From positions 1 through 51,049 of the IMG/VR virus record IMGVR_UViG_3300034102_000212: a DNA stretch of 51,049 bases, one strand, 5' to 3'. A program made the position numbers and the translations under genes. The first letter of the stretch is position 1, and every line of letters starts with the position of its first letter. Shown piece by piece: positions 37,026 through 50,248 of this stretch. The DNA comes from a virus. The notes beneath the pieces were generated by a model. It saw only the letters and a program-made list of their open reading frames with translations. It did no database searches and had not been told where the DNA came from.

Positions 37026-37316
37026 TTAATCTTTTAATAAAATAGTTAACTCAGGGTGACCAGCTTCTCTTAGACGATTAGCTATGGTCGTACGGTCTGA
37101 GCGCACCGCTTGTTGCAAATACTGAATTAGAACAATACGTAAGTTGCTCTTAAATGCTTCTGCTTGTTCACGAATCACTGGGTGAGACTTAGAACCTACA
37201 TAAACAATCTTGTCTAAGGCTTGTTCAGCTAATTCTTCTGGAGTAAATCCACGCCCAGATGTTGAAAGCACTGAAACATTGCCGCCTATGAATCCGTCTA
37301 CTGTATCTAAGTTCAT
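37026..37316 (-). CDS. Small conserved phage protein, 96 aa
   Basis: Helical protein, FTPEELAEQALDKIVYV then SHPVIREQAEAFKSNLRIVL then AVRSDRTTIANRLREAGHPE. This pattern recurs in environmental phages near head-to-tail genes and is of unknown function. Its start overlaps the neck protein by 4 nt, supporting co-expression. Confidence 0.7.
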   Translation of the reverse strand: MNLDTVDGFIGGNVSVLSTSGRGFTPEELAEQALDKIVYVGSKSHPVIREQAEAFKSNLRIVLIQYLQQAVRSDRTTIANRLREAGHPELTILLKD

Positions 37317-37996
37317 TGTACTGGCACCCTTGCTTGCATTGTTCTATAAGTATCTTGACGGTCTTTACCTTCACCCAACTGCTTCAACTGCATTAGAGCT
37401 TCATTGTAACGGCCTAGATAGCCCTGAATTACGTCGGCTTCACCCTTCATGTAGGTGTACGCTTCTAATAAAGAGCCATAAAGTAATACTGAATCAAAGT
37501 TATTGCCCAACCAGCTAGTACCTGCGGTCACAATAGAATCTGGGTATCCAAAGTAATGCAGCTCCATGTTGTAGCCAGCATCGGGTGTTGGGCCCAAAAT
37601 AAACGTTGTGTTGTCAAAAATAGCGTAATACTGCGGTGTACCTAAAGTATCTGGCGGTGGATAACTTTCTCTGATGAACTCTACGTCCTTATTCAACAAA
37701 TAAGTTTGTGCCTGAGTAGTTGGGTGGATAACCGCTAAAGAGAAAGTAGACAACCAATCTGTCGGTACATTAAGGTATTTGTTACCTGTTGTTAGCAAGC
37801 CAGTTACGTTCTTTCTAAGTACAGGTAGCTGCACTGAGTTATAGATGCGCTGCTCAGCCTGCTGGATGAACGTATTAATCTGCTCGGTACCAGTAAACGT
37901 AACGGTGCCAGAACCAGTTGAACTAGTCCAACCTTGGTCTGGAAAGTCATTTTCTACATAACTTTTTATGGTTTCAAACAGAGTAGCGTAGTTCAT
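37313..37996 (-). CDS. Head-to-tail adaptor / neck protein
   Basis: 227 residues. NYATLFETIKSYVENDFPDQ at the start, INTFIQQAEQRIYNSVQLPV and PTDWLSTFSLAV in the middle and FDSVLLYGSLLEAYTYMKGE with YNEALMQLKQLGEGK near the end match the layout of phage adaptor proteins (tail-tube A/gp6-type neck proteins), which ring the portal and join the tail. Assignment by pattern; role in neck assembly is probable. Confidence 0.72.
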   Translation of the reverse strand: MNYATLFETIKSYVENDFPDQGWTSSTGSGTVTFTGTEQINTFIQQAEQRIYNSVQLPVLRKNVTGLLTTGNKYLNVPTDWLSTFSLAVIHPTTQAQTYLLNKDVEFIRESYPPPDTLGTPQYYAIFDNTTFILGPTPDAGYNMELHYFGYPDSIVTAGTSWLGNNFDSVLLYGSLLEAYTYMKGEADVIQGYLGRYNEALMQLKQLGEGKDRQDTYRTMQARVPVQ

Positions 37997-38009: not shown

Positions 38010-38270
38010 TTAGGCCATTGGTCCACGTGCTTTAGTGCCTTTAGTAGCTGCACCTGTACCACGAATCTTTGTTTCGCCGTTCTTGTTGATAGGGTCAAAA
38101 CAACCCTTGGTATAACCGCCAACAGACATATTTACCTTGTCAACGCCGTTGCCAGGTTTAGTTACTGCGTCTTTAGCATTTTTCATCTTTTTACCATCCA
38201 TAGTATGTGGCTCAGCATATACAGAAGCTGGGCCTACTTCTTTCCCGCCTTTTTTCATGCTGTAAGCCAT
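38010..38270 (-). CDS. Small basic GGK/KIRG-type protein, 86 aa
   Basis: Lys/Gly-rich: MAYSMKKGGKEVGPASVYAE, DAVTKPGNGVDKVNMSV, and the end GETKIRGTGAATKGTKARGP MA. The last 20 residues are a variant of the repeated tag of the neighbouring family (KIRG-KGxKARG in place of KGKTRGK). No catalytic residues seen. Probably a virion or packaging-associated protein whose exact role is unknown. Confidence 0.7.
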   Translation of the reverse strand: MAYSMKKGGKEVGPASVYAEPHTMDGKKMKNAKDAVTKPGNGVDKVNMSVGGYTKGCFDPINKNGETKIRGTGAATKGTKARGPMA

Positions 38271-38272
38271 AA

Positions 38273-38467
38273 TTAACCTCGCTTTTGAGCAGCAACTTTA
38301 GCTAAGCCACGACCCATAGTTTTCATATCAATGTTGCGTTTACCGCCACCTGATGTCTTTGTGCCTTTGCCTTTTAGCGCCGCTACTGTTGGACCTGAAT
38401 CACCAAGGTTTTTACCCTTAGTTTTGCCTTGTTTGGTGATACCATCTGCGCCTGATTTATAACCCAT
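38273..38467 (-). CDS. Small basic protein with N-terminal ADG-GKTKGK tag, 64 aa
   Basis: Contains SGADGITKQGKTKGKNLGDS at the N-terminus, close to the C-terminal tag of the genes at 40.4-42 kb (ADGCAIKGKTRGK), then a Gly/Lys-rich core and MGRGLAKVAAQKRG. The tag at the N-terminal end instead of the C-terminal end suggests a mobile short domain. Unknown function. Confidence 0.68.
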   Translation of the reverse strand: MGYKSGADGITKQGKTKGKNLGDSGPTVAALKGKGTKTSGGGKRNIDMKTMGRGLAKVAAQKRG

Positions 38468-38476
38468 GATTTACTC

Positions 38477-38899
38477 CTAAGAAGTTGTTATTGTGACTAT
38501 ACCTACTTGTCCGTTGGCAAGCAAGGTATTTGGTGTTAATCCATAGTCGTTACCCAACCCAACAGGGTTCCAGCCCCATTGAATTACTCTACTACCCCCA
38601 GCAGGGAACCCGATACCTTGAATACTTGTGCTATCTGTTAACAGGTCTTGCAAACCAGTTGTACCAGAAACCAAATAGCTTAAGTCAGGACGTGGTTCAC
38701 GTATTGCCTGTGGGTCGTTCACAGGGTACATACCTAACTGTAACTGTGGATGGTCAGGGTCCCAGCAAGACTTACATACCTTAATTTTAAAAGGCTTGGT
38801 CTTGACTGTCTGGGTACGCAACTCCCTTAGTTTGTAACGCTGGTCACAGCGGTCACATTGGGAAATTGCATTTTTACCTGACGCAAACTTAGTAGGCAT
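38477..38899 (-). CDS. Virion protein with N-terminal zinc ribbon, 140 aa
   Basis: N-terminal CxxC pair, SQCDRCDQRY (Cys15, Cys18), pairs with VCKSCWDPDH (about 42-45), a zinc ribbon. The rest is hydrophobic and Gly-rich (GIGFPAGGSRVIQWGWNPVG, NGQVGIVTITTS), typical of a virion component. Situated between the neck gene and the tagged proteins. Exact role unknown. Confidence 0.72.
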   Translation of the reverse strand: MPTKFASGKNAISQCDRCDQRYKLRELRTQTVKTKPFKIKVCKSCWDPDHPQLQLGMYPVNDPQAIREPRPDLSYLVSGTTGLQDLLTDSTSIQGIGFPAGGSRVIQWGWNPVGLGNDYGLTPNTLLANGQVGIVTITTS

Positions 38900-38901
38900 G
38901 C

Positions 38902-39834
38902 TTACCTGTAATAGAACATGTTACGTGGAACAAACCGCACTGACGCTTTATCTCTATCTTCGTCAGCGGCTAACTGAAATTGTTGCTCGTAATCTTGTTT
39001 AAGCATCATGATACGGTCTGGGGACACTTCAGACTTTTTCATAGACATGTAATAAGCTAAACCAGCTACTAATGCTGGAAGTAGTCGGTATGGAATATCT
39101 TGCTCAAAGCTACCGCCAACACCGGCATCTTGCATGCGACGTAGTCTGTAATACACGAATGTGTACTGATTGCCTGGTGGGTTAGGCGTAGGCCATAGAT
39201 TTACGCACGGTAGGTTCTGAACCGTAATAGATGCACCAGTTGTATGTGCTGCAGCCGTCGTATTGTTCTGCCCACGGTAGCAGTTTACTAGCTGATTGCC
39301 ACTGATGTTTGAGTAGCTGATAGTCTCGTTGTCAATCTTAATAAAGCCCACAGAGGCTATATTAGCTGTAGAGCTAAGCGTAATCGTTGTATCAGTAGAA
39401 GAAATATTACCGACTAAGGTAACGGATGTTGCATTTTCCATACCTGATTGACGGTTGACATACATCTGGATTGGGCGTCCAGTTGTTAGTTTGTTTGGGA
39501 TTGACATATAAGTCGGCTCAGCAATACGGCTGATATTGATGTCAATCTGGTTTGATGTGCTGCCGTTGTTTGTACGGATAACCGCATCAAGAATGTCTAC
39601 TGTGTCGACAGGCAACGGATAGATTGGCTGCCCAGTAACCATAGCAATTGATTGTTGCTCAACTGTCCAAAGATTAATGCCGCGATTTGACCACTCCATG
39701 CACAACAAGTTCATAGAACGTCTAGCGGTCTTTAGGTCGTAGCCAGTACGTAGCTCTAAGCCACAACGCTCGAAGGCTTCCTCGACGATGTTGTTTAGGT
39801 CTAGATTAAAGGACGTTGTACCTGATGTGCTCAT
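38902..39834 (-). CDS. P22 gp4-like tail accessory / neck protein
   Basis: 310 residues. The core is NLDLNNIVEEAFERCGLELR, LKTARRSMNLLCMEWSNRGI and YPLPVDTVDILDAV, which agree with the tail accessory factor (gp4 of P22) family that forms the first ring below the portal. A beta-rich insertion (SVTLVGNISSTDTTITLSST ... GQNNTTAAAHTTGASITV) at about 139-206 is typical for environmental relatives. The C-terminus (FEQDIPYRLLPALVAGLAYY) returns to the helical fold. Confidence 0.8.
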   Translation of the reverse strand: MSTSGTTSFNLDLNNIVEEAFERCGLELRTGYDLKTARRSMNLLCMEWSNRGINLWTVEQQSIAMVTGQPIYPLPVDTVDILDAVIRTNNGSTSNQIDINISRIAEPTYMSIPNKLTTGRPIQMYVNRQSGMENATSVTLVGNISSTDTTITLSSTANIASVGFIKIDNETISYSNISGNQLVNCYRGQNNTTAAAHTTGASITVQNLPCVNLWPTPNPPGNQYTFVYYRLRRMQDAGVGGSFEQDIPYRLLPALVAGLAYYMSMKKSEVSPDRIMMLKQDYEQQFQLAADEDRDKASVRFVPRNMFYYR

Positions 39835-40085
39835 TATTTAACCTTTCGGTACGGCTTTACTTTTTGTTTAACACTCTTAGGCTGGGCTACAAACTGTTTT
39901 CCAGCTGCTTTTCCTGCTCGTTTTGCTTTGGTTGTTGCTGCATACTCAGCAGGTGACAACGCTTTAATTGCTTTTTCTGGCAAGTATCGTTCTCCAGTGT
40001 CACTTGAACGCTTCCCAGACTTAGTTGTCCACTTTTGAGCGGTCCAAGACTTAAGAGAGCGCTGACTTTTTGCAAGGCCACTCAC
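39834..40085 (-). CDS. Small basic protein (DUF5872-like), GTG start
   Basis: 83 residues, strongly basic: SLKSWTAQKWTTKSGKRSSD, ERYLPEKAIKALSPAEYAAT TKAKRAG, and the end QFVAQPKSVKQKVKPYRKVK. This fits a small domain widespread in aquatic viruses (I recall DUF5872), of unknown role. The start codon is GTG just past the stop of the upstream gene. It likely binds nucleic acid given charge. Confidence 0.72.
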   Translation of the reverse strand: MSGLAKSQRSLKSWTAQKWTTKSGKRSSDTGERYLPEKAIKALSPAEYAATTKAKRAGKAAGKQFVAQPKSVKQKVKPYRKVK

Positions 40086-40373
40086 TTACTTATACCCGCC
40101 ACCAGACGCTTTATAGCGCTTGGCTAATAGTTGAGCCTTACGAGCACTCCACTGACCTGCAGCGGTGCCCTGAACGGCTGAATTTTTAATCTGGTTAAAT
40201 ATGGCTTTACGCTTGCCTGGTTGGGTATAGTTGCCTGCAGCATTTACCTTAGACTTAACTTTGCCACCTTCGGCATAAAGGTCTACATCATTAGGATTAT
40301 CCTTGCGCTTGATTACCTTTTTACCAGGCATCTTGCTTGGATTGATTGCGCCCATACCACGACTAGGTCTCAT
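40086..40373 (-). CDS. Small basic protein with GG motifs, 95 aa
   Basis: Preferred start is the ATG at 40373, one base after the upstream stop (TAATATG); an in-frame ATG at 40415 would overlap it by 41 nt. Contains YAEGGKVKSKVNAAGNYTQP, AVQGTAAGQWSARKAQLLAK and ends YKASGGGYK. Two double-glycine motifs and a Lys/Arg-rich helix mark it as part of the same gene group. No known enzyme motif. Confidence 0.72.
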   Translation of the reverse strand: MRPSRGMGAINPSKMPGKKVIKRKDNPNDVDLYAEGGKVKSKVNAAGNYTQPGKRKAIFNQIKNSAVQGTAAGQWSARKAQLLAKRYKASGGGYK

Positions 40374-40374
40374 A

Positions 40375-40947
40375 TTAAGCTCTTGTCTTTCCGCGAATGC
40401 AGCAGCCATCCGCACGTTTAGATGCTGAAGAAACTTTACCGCCTGATTTGTAATTCATCTTCTTCATCTTATCCATCTTATCTGATGGTACACCACCGCC
40501 ACCACCTTTTGGTTTAGCTAAAATTTCTTTCATCTTAGCTAGTTCAGAAGAAACTGTTAAAGGACTAGCTTTAACTCGCTTATCGGCGTATTCAGCATTT
40601 TCAGCTTTACGAGCCATAGCTTTATCTTTAGCTTCTTTATCTCTATCAGCTTTTTCTTGAGCGCGACGGTCCATTTCAGCTTCAAGCGCTGGATTGCCAA
40701 AGTTCATGCGTGTCTGTTCGCTAGATTGTTGTTTAACCGCTGCAGCACGCTTAGCGTCTTTTGCTTTCTCCGCATCAGCCGCTTCTTTGTAAGCCGCTTC
40801 TTTAGCGGCTTTTGCTTTCTCTTTGTCTGTAAGTTCTGGCACACCACTTAGTTTCTTTTGTCCAGAAACAGGTTTACCTTCGCCTACGTCTTTCATTGGC
40901 TTTTCTTGCTTTGGCTCTTCAGAGAATAGGTCAAACTGTTCGGCCAT
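40375..40947 (-). CDS. Tagged coiled-coil protein, 190 aa
   Basis: Residues about 30-140 form a long Ala/Lys/Glu/Arg coiled coil (KEAAYKEAADAEKAKDAKRA; MDRRAQEKADRDKEAKDKAM). The C-terminus is YKSGGKVSSASKRADGCCIR then GKTRA, a full copy of the repeated tag, here with a second Cys. It begins with QFDLFSEEPKQE, a short QFDLF element that resembles a sliding-clamp-binding motif (QxxLF). The tag may be an assembly or packaging signal. Confidence 0.75.
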   Translation of the reverse strand: MAEQFDLFSEEPKQEKPMKDVGEGKPVSGQKKLSGVPELTDKEKAKAAKEAAYKEAADAEKAKDAKRAAAVKQQSSEQTRMNFGNPALEAEMDRRAQEKADRDKEAKDKAMARKAENAEYADKRVKASPLTVSSELAKMKEILAKPKGGGGGVPSDKMDKMKKMNYKSGGKVSSASKRADGCCIRGKTRA

Positions 40948-40949
40948 GA

Positions 40950-41234
40950 TTACACCATCTTTCCACGAGTTTTACCTTTGATAGCGCATCCATCAGCACG
41001 TTTAGAGGCTGAAGATACTTTACCGCCTTTTTTCATAGGCATTGGAGCTTGACCGCCTTGACCTGGAACCATACCTGCCTGAGCTTCACGACGTTTCTTT
41101 TCTTCACGGTCGTCTAGTTTATTAGCGGCAATATTACCTACCAAACCTAAACCACGAAGCATATCTGGGTTTTTAGCAATTAGCGCTGTACCTAAACCCA
41201 AAGCACCTGATTTTGCAATGTCTTTGAACGCCAT
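40950..41234 (-). CDS. Tagged small protein, 94 aa
   Basis: Opening MAFKDIAKSGALGLGTALIA with a hydrophobic helix, then a basic middle, and the C-terminal tag GGKVSSASKRADGCAIKGKT RGKMV in full. It overlaps the next tagged gene by 1 nt. DNA of the tag is clearly diverged from that of neighbours although the peptide is almost identical, so selection acts on the peptide. Confidence 0.75.
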   Translation of the reverse strand: MAFKDIAKSGALGLGTALIAKNPDMLRGLGLVGNIAANKLDDREEKKRREAQAGMVPGQGGQAPMPMKKGGKVSSASKRADGCAIKGKTRGKMV

Positions 41235-41626
41235 TAAACTATCCTGCCTCTCGTTTTACCTTTAACAGCACAGCCGTCAGCACGCTTAGACGCAGATGAA
41301 ACTGTACCACCGGACTTCATAGCTTTACCAACTTTAGACTTCTTACCCATATTAGGAGCGCGTACACCCATCCCGGTATCGACTGGAGAACGTACTGGGT
41401 TTGTATCATACATTTCTTCGTCGCCAGTAGTAGCAATATTACGTGGACGAAATCCTGTTTCCTTTTCGCCAGTATCTGGGTTTTTACCAGTCGCAGCACG
41501 ATACATTTTTTGTGCTCCTTCAGCAATGGCACGAGCTGGAGCCGCAACTATTTCACGGTCTTCTTTGTTCTTCTCACGAGCTAGTTGGTCAACTAAGTCC
41601 TGTGGCAATTCGTCTTTTTTAGCCAT
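41234..41626 (-). CDS. Tagged small protein, 130 aa
   Basis: Mixed-charge N-terminus (LVDQLAREKNKEDREIVAAP, ARAIAEGAQKMYRAAT), middle TGDEEMYDTNPVRSPVDTGM, and the end KSGGTVSSASKRADGCAVKG KTRGRIV. The tag differs from its neighbours at only a few residues. Adjoins both neighbours tightly. Function unknown. Confidence 0.75.
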   Translation of the reverse strand: MAKKDELPQDLVDQLAREKNKEDREIVAAPARAIAEGAQKMYRAATGKNPDTGEKETGFRPRNIATTGDEEMYDTNPVRSPVDTGMGVRAPNMGKKSKVGKAMKSGGTVSSASKRADGCAVKGKTRGRIV

Positions 41627-41628
41627 GA

Positions 41629-42024
41629 TTACACCATTTTTCCGCGGGTTTTACCCTTGATTGCGCATCCATCAGCGCGGGATGAGGCGGAAGATATTTT
41701 GCCGCCTTTAGCTTTTTTAACTGGCTCTTTGTCTTCTTTATCTTTTACCGGACCATACGCCAAACGATTTTTAGCAGCGTGCATTGCGGCTTTTGGTAAA
41801 GATGATACGTACATTTTAGCAGTCGTACCTAGACCCTTTACTGCGTCTATAGCTGCGTCTTTATACTTACCTTCTTTAGCATTTTTAATCATGGAGTCGC
41901 CACTAGCTTTCTGTGCAGCTTCATCTTCCTCAACAGTTTCATACGCGTTGGGGCTGTATTTTTTAAGTGTTGACGCTATGCTGTTATCAACATCACCACC
42001 TTTAGCAAATTTACGTTTTTTCAT
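41629..42024 (-). CDS. Tagged small protein, 131 aa
   Basis: N-terminus MKKRKFAKGGDVDNSIASTL, then an acidic/helical centre (EEDEAAQKASGDSMIKNAKE), a segment KMYVSSLPKAAMHAAKNRL, and the end AKGGKISSASSRADGCAIKG KTRGKMV. It contains a double-glycine motif near the start as well as in the tag. Overlaps the neighbouring gene by 1 nt. Confidence 0.75.
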   Translation of the reverse strand: MKKRKFAKGGDVDNSIASTLKKYSPNAYETVEEDEAAQKASGDSMIKNAKEGKYKDAAIDAVKGLGTTAKMYVSSLPKAAMHAAKNRLAYGPVKDKEDKEPVKKAKGGKISSASSRADGCAIKGKTRGKMV

Positions 42025-42482
42025 TAGCAGCTCCCGCCACGCTTCATCTTAACCATAGTACCTTTGGTTTTACCTTTCATCTCGATGCCACCGCCGCGAG
42101 CCATTTTCTTAGGAGCGCAAGCCATACCACCAGACTTTAGTTTGCTCATGTCAGACTTCTTGCCACCATGCAACTGCTTCTCGTGCATGCCAACGGCTTT
42201 CTTGACAACCTTCTTGTCCATCTTAACGTCTGAATGTTTCACGTCGCCGCCTTTTTTCATGTAGCCCATTTTGTTCCTCACTTCAGTTGGTAGTTTAGCC
42301 AAGCCTGGATTGCTCTCAGCATCAGTTTGTTTTAGGGCACCGCCCTCTTTAAATTTACGACCTTTATCTGCCTTCATAAACTCTGCTCCTACGGATTTAG
42401 ACACGCCAACTTTCTTGGCAAATTTAGGGTTGTTAGCCACAGCAGCCATAAACCCGTGTTGTTTTTTACTTGTGCTCGGCAT
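42024..42482 (-). CDS. Small basic GG-motif protein, DUF3008-like opening, 152 aa
   Basis: Starts MPSTSKKQHGFMAAVANNPK, FAKKVGVSKSVGAEFMKADK, an opening common in aquatic phages. It has six double-glycine elements (EGGALK, KKGGDVK, HGGKKS, KSGGMAC, RGGGIEMK, RGGSC). The C-terminal stretch GGGIEMKGKTKGTMV is a variant of the tag. Four Lys clusters make it strongly basic. Possibly DNA- or capsid-associated. Confidence 0.75.
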   Translation of the reverse strand: MPSTSKKQHGFMAAVANNPKFAKKVGVSKSVGAEFMKADKGRKFKEGGALKQTDAESNPGLAKLPTEVRNKMGYMKKGGDVKHSDVKMDKKVVKKAVGMHEKQLHGGKKSDMSKLKSGGMACAPKKMARGGGIEMKGKTKGTMVKMKRGGSC

Positions 42483-42669
42483 CTTTTTTCTTCCCTAAAA
42501 GACCTTGAATAGTATCGGTTTCGTAAATGCGGATTGCTGTCCAGCATATAGTAAATAATGCAGCAATAGAAGGTAGCATTTCCACAAGAGTTCCTAATAC
42601 AGTAGCGATAGACGCGGCATCAATAAGATGTTTTGTACCATCATTTAAGTCTTTAAAGATGTCTTTCAT
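42466..42669 (-). CDS. Small membrane protein, putative holin-like, 67 aa
   Basis: One or two hydrophobic helices, DAASIATVLGTLVEMLPSIA and ALFTICWTAIRIYE, between charged ends (MKDIFKDLNDGTKHL; KKKDAEHK). Similar short proteins in aquatic phages occur next to the tagged proteins. It may be a second holin, an antiholin or a virion membrane protein. It overlaps the following gene by 17 nt. Confidence 0.68.
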   Translation of the reverse strand: MKDIFKDLNDGTKHLIDAASIATVLGTLVEMLPSIAALFTICWTAIRIYETDTIQGLLGKKKDAEHK

Positions 42670-42986
42670 ACCATTTTGCCTTTAGTCTTGCCACGAATCT
42701 CGCAGCCACCACCACGAACAGAACCGCCTTCTTTGCAGTTCCACGCACGTAATGACTTGTTAATGCGTGAATCTGGGTCATTCGCTGTTTTAGCTGAAGT
42801 TAACTTCTTCTTCATACCCTTCATGCGAGCACAGAAAGAATCACGGCGTGAGCCACCCTCTGGTTGAGGACGCTTAAGCCCAGGTTTCCCTGGGTTAGCT
42901 GCATTATAAGAAGCCCGACCTTTGGCATTTAAGCCTCCGGATTCAGACTTACCTTCTTTGCGAGTCCAAGCGGGCGACTTAGCCAT
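42666..42986 (-). CDS. Small basic tagged protein, 106 aa
   Basis: Opens MAKSPAWTRKEGKSESGGLN AKGRASYNAAN, a recurrent phage motif, then SRRDSFCARMKGMKKKLTS and INKSLRAWNCKEGGSVRGGG CEIRGKTKGKMV. The end matches the repeated tag (GCEIRGKTKGKMV). Two Cys and many Lys/Arg. It overlaps the upstream gene by 8 nt. Probably part of the same set as the 40-42 kb genes. Confidence 0.75.
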   Translation of the reverse strand: MAKSPAWTRKEGKSESGGLNAKGRASYNAANPGKPGLKRPQPEGGSRRDSFCARMKGMKKKLTSAKTANDPDSRINKSLRAWNCKEGGSVRGGGCEIRGKTKGKMV

Positions 42987-43500
42987 AATAAATCTGTGCT
43001 GCGCCTAGGTTAGTCATCAACGCGTAGATTCCGTTATTTACTAAGACGCCTTCGCCTGGAATAATTGGTGCGTTACTAAACGTGTCAGTAGCATCATTTT
43101 CATACGTCATTAACCACCTACCACCACCACTAACATAAGCTGCTGTCGCCGTATTAGCTACAGTCCCGCTATTAATGTCGGTTAACGTAAATGTATTTGC
43201 AGTAAGTCTAGTAATGGGATAATTACCGTCCGTTGCTGCTACACCACTAGCCGAATTAAAATGAATACCAACAACATCGCCAGTATTTAATCCGTGAGCA
43301 GTTTTAGTTACTGTTACTAAAGTTCCTGCTCGTTCATAAGTAACACTTGATGTAACGGGGGCAGTTGTAGTATCAAATAGCACTAAAGTACCATCTGTAC
43401 CAGAGCCATACCAAGAAACACCTTTAACACGGTTGCGCCCAAGAACAAAGAAACCACTTTGGTTTAAATGGCCTTGTTTTACGTCATATTGCATACCCAT
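42979..43500 (-). CDS. Virion structural protein, 173 aa
   Basis: Opens MGMQYDVKQGHLNQSGFFVL GRNRVKGV, then beta-rich sandwich-like sequence (AGTLVTVTKTAHGLNTGDVV, RLTANTFTLTDINSGTVANT), ending NNGIYALMTNLGAAQIYYG. Typical of a head decoration or spike. It is the second gene after the leader at 44.0 kb. AGGAG precedes its ATG. Confidence 0.75.
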   Translation of the reverse strand: MGMQYDVKQGHLNQSGFFVLGRNRVKGVSWYGSGTDGTLVLFDTTTAPVTSSVTYERAGTLVTVTKTAHGLNTGDVVGIHFNSASGVAATDGNYPITRLTANTFTLTDINSGTVANTATAAYVSGGGRWLMTYENDATDTFSNAPIIPGEGVLVNNGIYALMTNLGAAQIYYG

Positions 43501-44169: not shown

Positions 44170-45078
44170 TTAAGCGCCTTGTGAACCGAACATACCCAAT
44201 GGGTCTGAGAAACCGAATGAATAACGCTCACGAGCCTTGTAACGTACGTTACCAGTATCAAAGTCGCCGTCCATGCCAGTTGCCATAGGTGTACGAACAA
44301 AGTGCTTCATACCGTTAGGTACATCAGTAGTCAAGAACCATGCGTTGTTGTCTGTCAAGTAGTTGTTTACTGTGTAGCCTTCAGGGATAGAACCGTTGTT
44401 CTTGATAGCGTTGATGTCGTTATCAGCTGTACCAACACGCAATTCAGTCTCAAGCAAACGAGTTGCAACGAACTGTAATGATGGTGGAACAACCAATTTA
44501 CGAGGTTTAGCAGCAATCAAAAGACCACGCTCGTCTGTCCAAGCAGCGATTTGAATAACAGCATTTTCCAATGATGTTTCGTTCAAGTCAGCTTGAGTAG
44601 CCGGAGTGTTGCTGTTAACGCCACCAGAAACTAGTGGGTGTGCTGTAGAGAACAATGCAACGCCATCACCACCAGCAAAGGCAGAGTTGAAGCCGTTGTT
44701 CAATACGTTAGCAGCTTTAACTTGCTTTGTGTACGCCATAGCGCGAGCCAATGCTTTAGTGTAGCGACCAGACAATGAGTCATACAAGTTGTCTTCGATA
44801 GCCTCTTCAGTCAAGCTGAAGCCTAAAGCGATAGTCTCGTGTGTATAGCGAGCTGTAAACGCTTCCTGTGCGTTGTCGTAAGCCATTGCAGAACCTTCGT
44901 TCTTTACTGGCGCGGCACTGAAGCCTGACAACTTAGTTTCTTCTTCGAACGAACGCTCAGAAGTCTCTGTTTCGTAGATTTCTTTGTGTTGCTCACCGTA
45001 TGTTGCATACTCAAGTCCGAACAATGCGTTCAATCCTGGTAATAGCTCTTTTAAGAGTTGTGCGCGTGAAATAGCCAT
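44170..45078 (-). CDS. Major capsid protein (HK97-fold)
   Basis: 302 residues, the expected length. Opens MAISRAQLLKELLPGLNALF GLEY, then an N-arm, and FTARYTHETIALGFSLTEEA IEDN as spine/E-loop start, RALARAMAYTKQVKAANVLN NGFN as the long helix, and the P-domain/A-domain strands RKLVVPPSLQFVATRLLETE and AWFLTTDVPNGMKHFVRTPM. The end VRYKARERYSFGFSDPLGMF is the typical C-terminal strand. It is followed by a terminator, preceded by a decoration-like gene. Confidence 0.92.
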   Translation of the reverse strand: MAISRAQLLKELLPGLNALFGLEYATYGEQHKEIYETETSERSFEEETKLSGFSAAPVKNEGSAMAYDNAQEAFTARYTHETIALGFSLTEEAIEDNLYDSLSGRYTKALARAMAYTKQVKAANVLNNGFNSAFAGGDGVALFSTAHPLVSGGVNSNTPATQADLNETSLENAVIQIAAWTDERGLLIAAKPRKLVVPPSLQFVATRLLETELRVGTADNDINAIKNNGSIPEGYTVNNYLTDNNAWFLTTDVPNGMKHFVRTPMATGMDGDFDTGNVRYKARERYSFGFSDPLGMFGSQGA

Positions 45079-47179: not shown

Positions 47180-47575
47180 TTATTTACGTTTGATACCACG
47201 AGGGTCGTCTACCGTACCTTCAACGCTGTCGTCGTTGATGATGCGGAACTCTTTGCCGTGAATAACTAATCTTGTGCCGGCGTTTGGACGGACAAGGATA
47301 AAGTCACCTTCTTGGCACCAGTCACCTGTAGGGAAGCGGGCCGTATCTTTGTAACAATCCGGACCTTTCTTAACTACAAATAAAACTGTTGTGAGAACTT
47401 CTTCGTGATGCAGGGTTTGGTCTGCTTTTAATAAACCACTTTCGTATTCTTTCTCTACTTCTGGGATTGCGCAGAGAATGCGATAACCGGATGGTCGTGG
47501 TAGTTGTGATGCTTTGTCGTCGGCTGTTTGGGGCACGACAGTATCGCCGTTTGAAGCGATAATTAGGTCACTCAT
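47180..47575 (-). CDS. GroES-like co-chaperonin
   Basis: 131 residues. LPRPSGYRILCAIPEVEKEY ESGLL is the beta-strand start of Cpn10, LTTVLFVVKKGPDCYKDTAR F gives the next strands with a GP turn, and CQEGDFILVRPNAGTRLVIH G then EFRIINDDSVEGTVDDP fits the conserved GD-x-V ... AGTxhxxxGxE(Y/F)xIhxxxDhxGhh core. Phages that bring a co-chaperonin (such as T4 gp31) use it with host GroEL to fold the capsid protein. The mobile-loop region is the acidic EVEKEYESGLLKADQTLHHE. Position beside portal and capsid genes agrees. Confidence 0.85.
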   Translation of the reverse strand: MSDLIIASNGDTVVPQTADDKASQLPRPSGYRILCAIPEVEKEYESGLLKADQTLHHEEVLTTVLFVVKKGPDCYKDTARFPTGDWCQEGDFILVRPNAGTRLVIHGKEFRIINDDSVEGTVDDPRGIKRK

Positions 47576-47762
47576 CTGAGTTCTCCATGGTTGATTTGAG
47601 GTCTGTAACTACTAGACATGCGGCCTCAAGACCTCGTAATTGCCCGCATGAATACTTATACTCGTCAAAGGTCCCGCAACCACCCCTAGCAATAGCGTCT
47701 TGCAGTAGGTTGATGCGTTCTTGGTACTTATCGAGTAATAAATCTAGGATTTGTGAGTCCAT
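47568..47762 (-). CDS. Small conserved phage protein, 64 aa
   Basis: Helical protein, ILDLLLDKYQERINLLQDAI then GTFDEYKYSCGQLRGLEAAC. The GTFDEYKYSCGQLRGLE element recurs in small proteins next to portal genes of aquatic phages (recalled). Starts in a TAATG overlap with the portal stop and overlaps the GroES-like gene by 8 nt. Confidence 0.75.
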   Translation of the reverse strand: MDSQILDLLLDKYQERINLLQDAIARGGCGTFDEYKYSCGQLRGLEAACLVVTDLKSTMENSDE

Positions 47763-50248
47763 TAATCACCTTTTTTGGTAGGTTTCTGCTGTTTTTGGAC
47801 AGCCATTTGGGCTTGATTTCTTGCGATTTCAGAGCCAATTCTTAACCCTTCTAGCTGGTCTTTGGACGCTAGTTGGGCTTTATCACTAGCTACCTTAGCT
47901 CCAACCTGCATGCCAGCAATGCGCTCTTGGGCAGCAATGCGTTCACGCTCAATGTCTTGTTGGTCGGCTTTAGCAGCGGCATCCACTTGCAACTTAGTCT
48001 TCTTAATCTCAACTTCTTGAGCTTTAAGTTGTAACTCTTGCTGTTGCAACTGAATAAGTGGGTCTTGCGCCTGTTGTTGAGCTTGTTGTTGCTGAACTTC
48101 GGCTTGACTTTTCTGTAATAACTGTTGACCTGCTTGAGCAGCCATCTGAGAGATGCGCATCTCTAGCTCACGTGGGATGCCTTCATCCTCTTCACCTTCT
48201 TCAGTGCGAGGAATCTCCATACCCATCATTTGTTCCATCTGCTTCTTATATTCGAAGCCTAAGTGTTCCGCGATGTGTGCCTGCATAGCAGCGCCAATCT
48301 GTTGCGCCATCGGTGACTGGCCAACCAACTGCATAATCTTAGGGTCTTGCATAGCAGCCATGTGCACTTGAATATGCGCTTGATGGTCTTGGTAGTAGAA
48401 GGCCTTGATTGGTTTCATCATAAGAGCGTTTTGGTTCTCAGTTACTGGGTCTTCAGGCTTCTTGTCACCTTCTAACTTAATTAGTTTCTGAGCATTCTTA
48501 ATACCCAACACATCTAGCATTTGACGATGTAGCTGAGCTAGGTCGTATAACTGTGGTGCTGACTGGGCTAACTGTAGGGCAGCTTGATACTGAACAACTT
48601 TCTGTGACATTGTTGCAGCATTAGGGTCGCTAACAGGGATGACGTCCACCATGTCGTAATCAGACTGCTTGGCACGGCGAGAGCCAACTTCTGGCTCGTA
48701 TGGGTAGTCGGCTGGTGTGTAGTCACGAATAATTTCCTTAAGTAACTTAAGCTCTTGCTTCATTGAATAGTGCACGCGAGCCTGAACAGCTGACATCACC
48801 TTCAATGTTCTTTCCAAGATAGCCAATGTAGTGCCAACAGGAGAGTTAGCGCTCATGTCGCTAACCTTCATATCAGCAGCAGACGCAAAGCGACGGCCTT
48901 CTTCTACAATTGTGCCTAAGAGGGAGTAGAGGACTTGTGATGGCTCTTTATAAGGAAGAGGTAATACGTTGTCTCGCATTGTTCCGCTTGGGACGTCGAC
49001 GTCTCTCCATTCTCCTGGGCTAATCGGCGTGTCATCGCCTTTAATTCTAAGTCCACGAGTTTTGAATCCACCAGGTAGATTAGATAAAGTACCAGCATCA
49101 ACAAGCTGACGAATGATAGAAGTACCAGACTTAGCGAAGGCGCCAACGAGATGGATAAGACCAAAACAATAGAAGCCAAAGCCAGGTACATAGCCATAGT
49201 GAACAAAGTGGTTACGCTTTTGCTTTGTCTCATCTTCAGGGCGCCAATTGCGTCGTATTGATAAGATTGTGCTTGAACCTTTCTCAATTGTGACGATGTA
49301 CGGGAGCGCGATACCCGTTGGGTTGCCTTCGTCATCTGTGTCCTCATATCCTGGCAAGTCTAAGTTAACTTGCATCTCTAACAACTTGTAGCGGTTGTCA
49401 GTAGTAGCACGGAAGCCTAGCTTCTCAGCAATTTTCTTCTCTACTTCATCTAGTGTGTTGTCTGGCTCACCTAGGTCAACGTCACGATAGAAGCCAGCGT
49501 ACTGCAAGCGCTTTAGCTCATTCTCAGTCTTACGCATGACGTGTGTCACGCGGTCAGCTGTTTCTAGGTTTGATGCGCCATAAGGCACAACTACGTCTTC
49601 AGCTGGTACAAAAATAGAAGTCTCTCGGTTTAAACCTGGGTCAAAGTAGACCTTCTTAAACGCGTTACCTGATAGGCCAAGACCCCAACACATGCGTTCA
49701 TGCTCGTTGCGATACTCAACCATCACGTCGGTAATTCTGTAGTTCATGTCATCCTGAACACGCTCAGCAGCGTCTTTCTTCTCAGGAGTCTCACGTCCAA
49801 CAATCTGTGTCTTTACTGGGCCGGCTGCTGGCAATGTGCTCATCACAGTCTCAGCTTGGAACTTAACCAGAGCTTCACTTAATAGTGGATGGTACACGCC
49901 ACAGGCGCCTTCCCAAGGCTCAGCACGTTCTTCAATCTGCATACCTAATAGCTCTAAGCCATCAACGTATGTCTGCATCCAATCTTTGCGTGACCCAACG
50001 TCATCGTCGTAGTCACCAATCAAATCACCAGCTAATTGGGCCAGTGCGCCATCATCTAGTTCTTCGGCAATATTCTCGTCAAAGTCATCTTCTTCCTCAT
50101 CCTCTTCAATACGAAGGATGGGCATACCGTCAATGCCAATCTCTACAGACTCTGGGTCTTCAATTGTTATCTCAATATCAGGCTCTTCGTTATTTAGAAC
50201 TTGCTCAAGTCCTACAGGAGCTGCGTATAAACTTTTTTCAATCGACAT
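47762..50248 (-). CDS. Portal protein
   Basis: 828 residues. Acidic N-terminus, then RKDWMQTYVDGLELLGMQIE ERAEPWEGACGVYHPLLSEA, and RYEFT-like beta segment EHERMCWGLGLSGNAFKKVY FDPG, LPYIVTIEKGSSTILSIRRN, and VAFAKSGTSIIRQLVDAGTL plus RFASAADMKVSDMSANSPVG TTLAIL (the portal stem/wing). The C-terminal 110 residues are Gln-rich coiled coil (QSQAEVQQQQAQQQAQDPLI) which forms the barrel. Large portals of this layout occur in short-tailed environmental phages. It is preceded by AAGGA. Confidence 0.9.
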   Translation of the reverse strand: MSIEKSLYAAPVGLEQVLNNEEPDIEITIEDPESVEIGIDGMPILRIEEDEEEDDFDENIAEELDDGALAQLAGDLIGDYDDDVGSRKDWMQTYVDGLELLGMQIEERAEPWEGACGVYHPLLSEALVKFQAETVMSTLPAAGPVKTQIVGRETPEKKDAAERVQDDMNYRITDVMVEYRNEHERMCWGLGLSGNAFKKVYFDPGLNRETSIFVPAEDVVVPYGASNLETADRVTHVMRKTENELKRLQYAGFYRDVDLGEPDNTLDEVEKKIAEKLGFRATTDNRYKLLEMQVNLDLPGYEDTDDEGNPTGIALPYIVTIEKGSSTILSIRRNWRPEDETKQKRNHFVHYGYVPGFGFYCFGLIHLVGAFAKSGTSIIRQLVDAGTLSNLPGGFKTRGLRIKGDDTPISPGEWRDVDVPSGTMRDNVLPLPYKEPSQVLYSLLGTIVEEGRRFASAADMKVSDMSANSPVGTTLAILERTLKVMSAVQARVHYSMKQELKLLKEIIRDYTPADYPYEPEVGSRRAKQSDYDMVDVIPVSDPNAATMSQKVVQYQAALQLAQSAPQLYDLAQLHRQMLDVLGIKNAQKLIKLEGDKKPEDPVTENQNALMMKPIKAFYYQDHQAHIQVHMAAMQDPKIMQLVGQSPMAQQIGAAMQAHIAEHLGFEYKKQMEQMMGMEIPRTEEGEEDEGIPRELEMRISQMAAQAGQQLLQKSQAEVQQQQAQQQAQDPLIQLQQQELQLKAQEVEIKKTKLQVDAAAKADQQDIERERIAAQERIAGMQVGAKVASDKAQLASKDQLEGLRIGSEIARNQAQMAVQKQQKPTKKGD

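What the first reader, a model, noticed from the sequence alone, without database searches (positions are those of the whole stretch)
38010..42986. A family of adjacent small basic proteins sharing a repeated Cys-containing tag
Four neighbouring genes (40375-42024) end in the peptide SSASKRADGCAIKGKTRG or a near copy, and variants occur at the ends of the genes at 42024-42482 and 42666-42986, at the end of 38010-38270, and at the N-terminus of 38273-38467. The rest of each protein differs. Aligned by eye, the DNA of the tag in the genes at 40950 and 41234 differs at about 9 of 36 positions, mostly synonymous, so the peptide is held by selection and the duplication is not recent. A tag that moves between otherwise unrelated virion-region proteins could be an assembly address, a capsid or DNA anchor, or a protease/ligation signal. 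I know of no described function.
Basis: partly seen in the sequence, partly recalled or inferred. Interest (0 to 1): 0.85.

Follow-up and report, generated by a model that had tools for sequence, protein, structure and literature searches.

The report
Shared tag on hypervariable phage proteins
A large group of uncultured aquatic phages carries, beside its head genes, a rapidly swapped set of small basic proteins that share almost nothing except one short end-tag, which looks like an address label for loading changeable cargo into the virus particle.

Summary
The tag is real. Four adjacent genes (40375-42024, minus strand) end in SxASxRADG[CIV]Ax[KR]GKT[RK]G(K/R)(M/F/I)V. Weaker copies occur at the ends of 42024-42482 and 42666-42986 and at the start of 38273-38467; 38010-38270 does not pass the profile. 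The DNA of the copies differs almost to saturation at synonymous sites (pS 0.57-1.0, pN 0.06-0.15), so the peptide is under selection.

All 155 contigs of 5 kb or more found with it carry the same virion gene cassette. The tagged genes sit between the major capsid protein and the first adaptor. In phages whose adaptors are at least 90% identical, tagged bodies have a homologue in 24% of comparisons, flanking genes in 84-100%. The same DUF6321 domain occurs with and without the tag. Bodies are basic (pI about 10), small and hydrophobic-poor. The Cys is not essential.

Best explanation: an assembly address that loads an exchangeable set of small basic proteins into the phage head, working like the T4 capsid-targeting sequence. 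Loading, injection and any anti-defence role are inferred. No description was found in the papers searched.

The parts
40375..40947 (-). Tagged protein, 190 aa, variable body; C-terminal tag SSASKRADGCCIRGKTRA at about 40378-40437
   Evidence: body has relatives in only 3 other contigs
40950..41234 (-). Tagged protein, 94 aa, orphan body; tag at 40953-41021
41234..41626 (-). Tagged protein, 130 aa, variable body; tag at 41237-41305
   Evidence: its start is shared with a chimeric gene in L034
41629..42024 (-). Tagged protein, 131 aa, orphan body; tag at 41632-41700
42024..42482 (-). KQHxFMAAVANNPxFAKKVG-domain protein with degenerate tag (42051-42098) followed by a KMKRGGSC end; the domain occurs without the tag in phiKZ-like and other jumbo phages
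42666..42986 (-). DUF6321 protein with the tag appended after the domain's last Cys (tag 42669-42728)
38273..38467 (-). 64-aa protein with an N-terminal form of the tag (GADGITKQGKTKGKNLG, 38411-38470)
   Evidence: 31 of 94 relatives pass the tag profile
38010..38270 (-). Conserved small basic protein of the same cassette; its end only vaguely resembles the tag and does not pass the profile
40086..40415 (-). Conserved small basic protein closing the variable slot (phrog_17747)
39834..40085 (-). Conserved small basic protein (phrog_14910)
38902..39834 (-). Head-tail adaptor 1 (SU10_adaptor), downstream border of the cassette
37313..37996 (-). Second SU10_adaptor-family protein
42979..43500 (-). 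Small protein at the upstream border of the cassette
44170..45078 (-). Major capsid protein (Phage_capsid_4 / Mu gpT-like)
47762..50248 (-). Portal protein

Best explanation
The tag is a short, disordered, basic address peptide, usually at the C-terminus, that docks small, mostly disordered, basic proteins onto the assembling head, most likely on the inner face or core of the prohead. Any body joined to the tag is carried into the virion. The bodies can therefore be swapped freely by recombination while the tag stays fixed, giving each phage its own set of tagged proteins. Shown here: the conserved modular tag, its exclusive linkage to one virion cassette, the fixed slot and the very fast turnover of bodies. 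Inferred: packaging into the head, delivery into the next host, and a host-takeover or counter-defence role for the cargo (a protein made from the late head operon can act on a new host only if it is packaged).
For: The tag sits on unrelated bodies (109 representatives, chosen to be non-redundant, align only over KKGGxVxSASxRADGCAxRGKTKGxMV). Window copies have saturated synonymous but few amino-acid changes. The same DUF6321 domain ends at WNC or continues with the tag, 14 of 49 in one tree, at least 2 and probably 7 gains or losses, with no tag remnant after the stop of untagged copies. All 155 contigs of 5 kb or more found by the tag carry markers of the same virion cassette, and the order portal, MCP, DUF6321/KQH, tagged ORFs, 40086, 39834, adaptor is kept with small variations in the long genomes. 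Variable tagged bodies have a homologue in 38/156 comparisons at adaptor identity of at least 90%, against 84-100% for neighbouring genes in complete slots. The nearest relative L034 has 87-89% identical flanks but 2 tagged ORFs instead of 4, one a chimera. Tagged proteins are small (13.5 kDa), basic (median pI 10.1; bodies alone 9.9) and poor in hydrophobic residues. T4 internal proteins have the same signature: about 8-20 kDa, basic, poorly conserved between related phages, carried by a short conserved targeting peptide, some injected and one anti-restriction (PMC9026906).
Against: No proteome places any tagged protein in a virion. No prohead protease or cleavage motif at the tag was found, so release would differ from T4. 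Related phages with the same capsid (HTVC027P, DSL-LC04, CRP-902, QDWS535) lack the tag, so the capsid does not need it. No body matched an enzyme or known effector family. The tag is basic, so plain nucleic-acid binding is not excluded.
Confidence: 0.48

Rival explanations
1. The tag is a nucleic-acid-binding peptide: alternating basic residues (K/R-G-K-T-R/K-G-K/R) tether variable proteins to phage DNA or RNA, either in the infected cell or with the packaged genome.
For: Basic alternation in the tag; high pI of tag and bodies; tag predicted disordered alone.
Against: Plain charge would not conserve the ADG[CIV]A half, the exact glycines and the Thr; other strongly basic neighbours (39834, 40086) have no tag; exclusive linkage to one virion cassette.
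Confidence: 0.22
2. The tag anchors variable proteins on the outside of the particle (decoration or adhesion), as an interchangeable surface coat.
For: Fast-changing bodies are also typical of exposed adhesins; position next to head decoration genes.
Against: Bodies are disordered, very basic and lack Ig-like, lectin or other adhesion domains.
Confidence: 0.13
3. The tag is a processing signal: a C-terminal degron, protease site or Cys-based ligation or modification signal.
For: Usually C-terminal, ends in basic then hydrophobic residues.
Against: The Cys is replaced by Ile or Val in most copies; many copies are followed by 8-20 more residues and one family has it at the N-terminus, so a free C-terminus is not needed.
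Confidence: 0.08
4. The tag is a remnant P-loop (GxxxxGKT) nucleotide-binding motif.
For: DGCAIKGKT fits the Walker A string.
Against: Lys is replaced (GHT, GLT, GRT) in relatives; no fold around it, predicted disordered.
Confidence: 0.02
5. The tag is mainly a DNA-level recombination hook that helps gene swapping, with little protein function.
For: A chimeric gene in L034 joins the start of one tagged gene to the end of another.
Against: Synonymous sites are saturated while the peptide is kept; selection acts on the peptide.
Confidence: 0.04

Closest known systems
Phage T4 internal proteins IPI-IPIII with capsid-targeting sequence (CTS)
   Same: Short conserved peptide joined to small, basic proteins that diverge strongly between related phages; CTS alone carries foreign proteins into the head (PMC9026906).
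   Different: T4 CTS is N-terminal, 10-19 residues and cut off by gp21; this tag is mostly C-terminal, about 20 residues, with no known cleavage site; packaging not yet shown and no sequence comparison with the CTS was run.
Encapsulin cargo-loading peptides (from general knowledge)
   Same: C-terminal peptide on cargo proteins that binds an HK97-fold shell.
   Different: Sequence relation not tested; here many hypervariable cargoes in a phage rather than one enzyme in a compartment.
Long N-terminal propeptides of giant-phage head proteins (SPN3US)
   Same: Proposed to target diverse proteins into the head (PMC5694885).
   Different: Those are long, N-terminal and proteolysed.
Pfam DUF6321 proteins of cyanophages and pelagiphages
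   Same: Body of 42666-42986 is DUF6321.
   Different: DUF6321 is normally untagged; the tag is an added module.

Membership tests
T4 internal proteins / CTS | Short targeting-like peptide conserved across otherwise different small basic proteins | tested here: met
T4 internal proteins / CTS | Sequence relation to the T4 CTS | not tested
   No alignment to T4 CTS was run; position and length differ by description
T4 internal proteins / CTS | N-terminal position of the targeting peptide | tested here: not met
   344 of 369 tagged ORFs do not carry it at the N-terminus, most have it at or near the C-terminus
T4 internal proteins / CTS | Removal by the prohead protease | not testable with these tools
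   No protease was recognised among the neighbouring head genes; cleavage needs proteomics
T4 internal proteins / CTS | Presence inside the head and injection | not testable with these tools
   Needs virion proteomics
P-loop NTPase | Invariant Walker A lysine within a nucleotide-binding fold | tested here: not met
   GHT/GLT/GRT variants; tag disordered in models
DUF6321 (PF19846), for 42666-42986 only | Match above Pfam gathering score | tested here: met
   66.0 bits against cut-off 28.5

The most novel reading that the evidence does not exclude
A previously undescribed, transferable virion-loading tag marks a hypervariable arsenal of injected proteins in an abundant aquatic phage lineage, so that searching for the tag alone would list many unknown phage effectors, and fusing it to a protein would load that protein into the particles.
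Probability: 0.33. Interest if true: 0.88.

Novelty: new variant of a known kind. Interest (0 to 1): 0.72.

Why it matters
T4 is the textbook case of a phage packing a changeable set of proteins with a short address peptide. An independent solution in a widespread uncultured lineage would suggest that this strategy evolved more than once. It would also give a simple sequence handle for finding fast-evolving phage proteins that standard annotation misses: of 109 representative tagged proteins only three hit any Pfam family, DUF6496.

Tried and rejected
Tag alone against the PDB and cultured phages: no match, although a profile search of selected records finds one degenerate copy in MinM2. Capsid protein against PDB sequences: none. 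Pfam and PHROGs on the bodies: mainly the KQH domain and DUF6496. Fold search of the DUF6321 model: nothing significant. AlphaFold gave no structure for the tag. Readthrough or recent loss of the tag in untagged DUF6321 genes: no remnant downstream. Bacterial genomes: 5 pattern hits, of which 2 are the same phage cassette in MAG bins, 2 have no tag by profile, and 1 is near a contig end. Promoter and terminator scans were at chance level. Literature searches for the peptide and for shared tags found nothing relevant.

Full report
What was checked. The window is a 51,049-base virus record. The finding lies in its virion gene region on the minus strand: portal 47762-50248, a GroES-like gene 47180-47575, capsid protein 44170-45078, two SU10-type adaptors 38902-39834 and 37313-37996. 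The copy claimed at the end of 38010-38270 does not pass.

The peptide is selected. Between the three full copies in the window, synonymous sites differ at 0.57-1.0 and non-synonymous sites at 0.06-0.15. Over 144 strict copies from many contigs there are 114 peptide and 142 DNA versions; non-synonymous change is about 0.3 of synonymous, a figure lowered somewhat because copies were chosen by a peptide pattern.

It is common and confined to one virion type. All 93 and 62 contigs of at least 5 kb from the two scans hold at least one other gene of the window's virion cassette. Sixteen records of 40 kb or more, the window included, hold 1-7 tagged genes, clustered in the same place. Cultured relatives sharing portal, capsid and adaptors mostly lack the tag. 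Synechococcus phage MinM2 (65,014 bases, same length and same match statistics as Pag-Yong1 and Pra-JY27) has one degenerate copy, GRDGCAKRGRTKGRFI, at a protein end between capsid and adaptor.

It is a module. DUF6321 is a complete small domain in many phages; in this lineage it ends at its usual last Cys or continues for about 22 residues with the tag. On a tree of 49 domains (few columns, weak support) the tag needs 7 changes, at least 2 forced by supported branches. Most untagged DUF6321 genes found are on contigs that carry tags on other genes (78 of 81). The KQH domain of 42024-42482 likewise exists in phiKZ-like phages, where the match ends before any tag.

The bodies turn over very fast. 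In 117 contigs with a complete slot between capsid or DUF6321 and adaptor there are 0-6 variable tagged genes, usually 1-3. Among phages with adaptors at least 90% identical, 38 of 156 variable bodies have any homologue in the partner, against 84/84, 60/63, 90/90 and 58/69 for DUF6321, KQH, 40086 and 39834. BLAST can miss low-complexity proteins, but at such close kinship point mutation alone should leave detectable similarity. The nearest relative, L034, has flanks 87-89% identical in DNA, yet two tagged genes in place of four; one begins like 41234-41626 and ends like 40950-41234. So bodies are exchanged by recombination and the tag is kept.

Nature of the proteins. Tagged proteins have a median mass of 13.5 kDa and pI 10.1; bodies alone have pI 9.9; hydrophobic residues make up about 15% against 28% in the window's other proteins. 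That is the composition of disordered proteins. The models of two tagged proteins give helical N-terminal domains and a disordered tag. The Cys position is Ile 183, Val 69, Cys 67 once the scanned copy of each contig is dropped (the two sets overlap partly), so Cys chemistry is not the function. A [FYMLW]xxGG module precedes the tag in 260 of 344 proteins; a [FYM]xxGG string is present in 5% of other ORFs of similar length.

Interpretation. A conserved address on unlike, basic, fast-exchanged small proteins placed among head genes matches the logic of T4 internal proteins and their capsid-targeting sequence (PMC9026906). I therefore favour a virion-loading tag (0.48). Packaging, receptor and injection are not shown; late expression is inferred from gene position. 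Nucleic-acid tethering is the strongest rival. It works like a CTS system but cannot be filed as a member: the position differs, and protease removal and packaging are untested.

Novelty. Searches of open papers for the peptide found nothing relevant, and the tag itself hit no model in Pfam or PHROGs. I rate it a new variant of a known kind, of high interest because the test is simple and the lineage abundant.

Noticed in passing
window 42024-42482, N-terminal 56 aa: KQHxFMAAVANNPxFAKKVG domain is shared with jumbo phages (phiKZ 165.1, 201phi2-1, PhiPA3 gp316, 121Q structural proteins); an unexplained small helical domain crossing very different phages.
   Followed up: partly
window 38010-42986 and relatives: A short [FYM]xxGGx(V/A/S) module is repeated inside tagged and some untagged small proteins, also in untagged relatives such as DSL-LC04 and HTVC027P; it may be a second docking motif.
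   Followed up: partly
L189 (Patulibacter MAG contig), 165-2003: A tag at the end of a long open frame near a contig edge in a bacterial bin, without other cassette genes; possibly a chimeric assembly.
   Followed up: no
window 47180-47575: GroES-like co-chaperonin gene next to the head genes, also present in cultured relatives.
   Followed up: no
L128 (OQ594354.1) and records OL906435.1, PP438419.1: Three phages reported from different hosts have the same genome length (65,014) and identical match statistics, suggesting one phage under three names.
   Followed up: no
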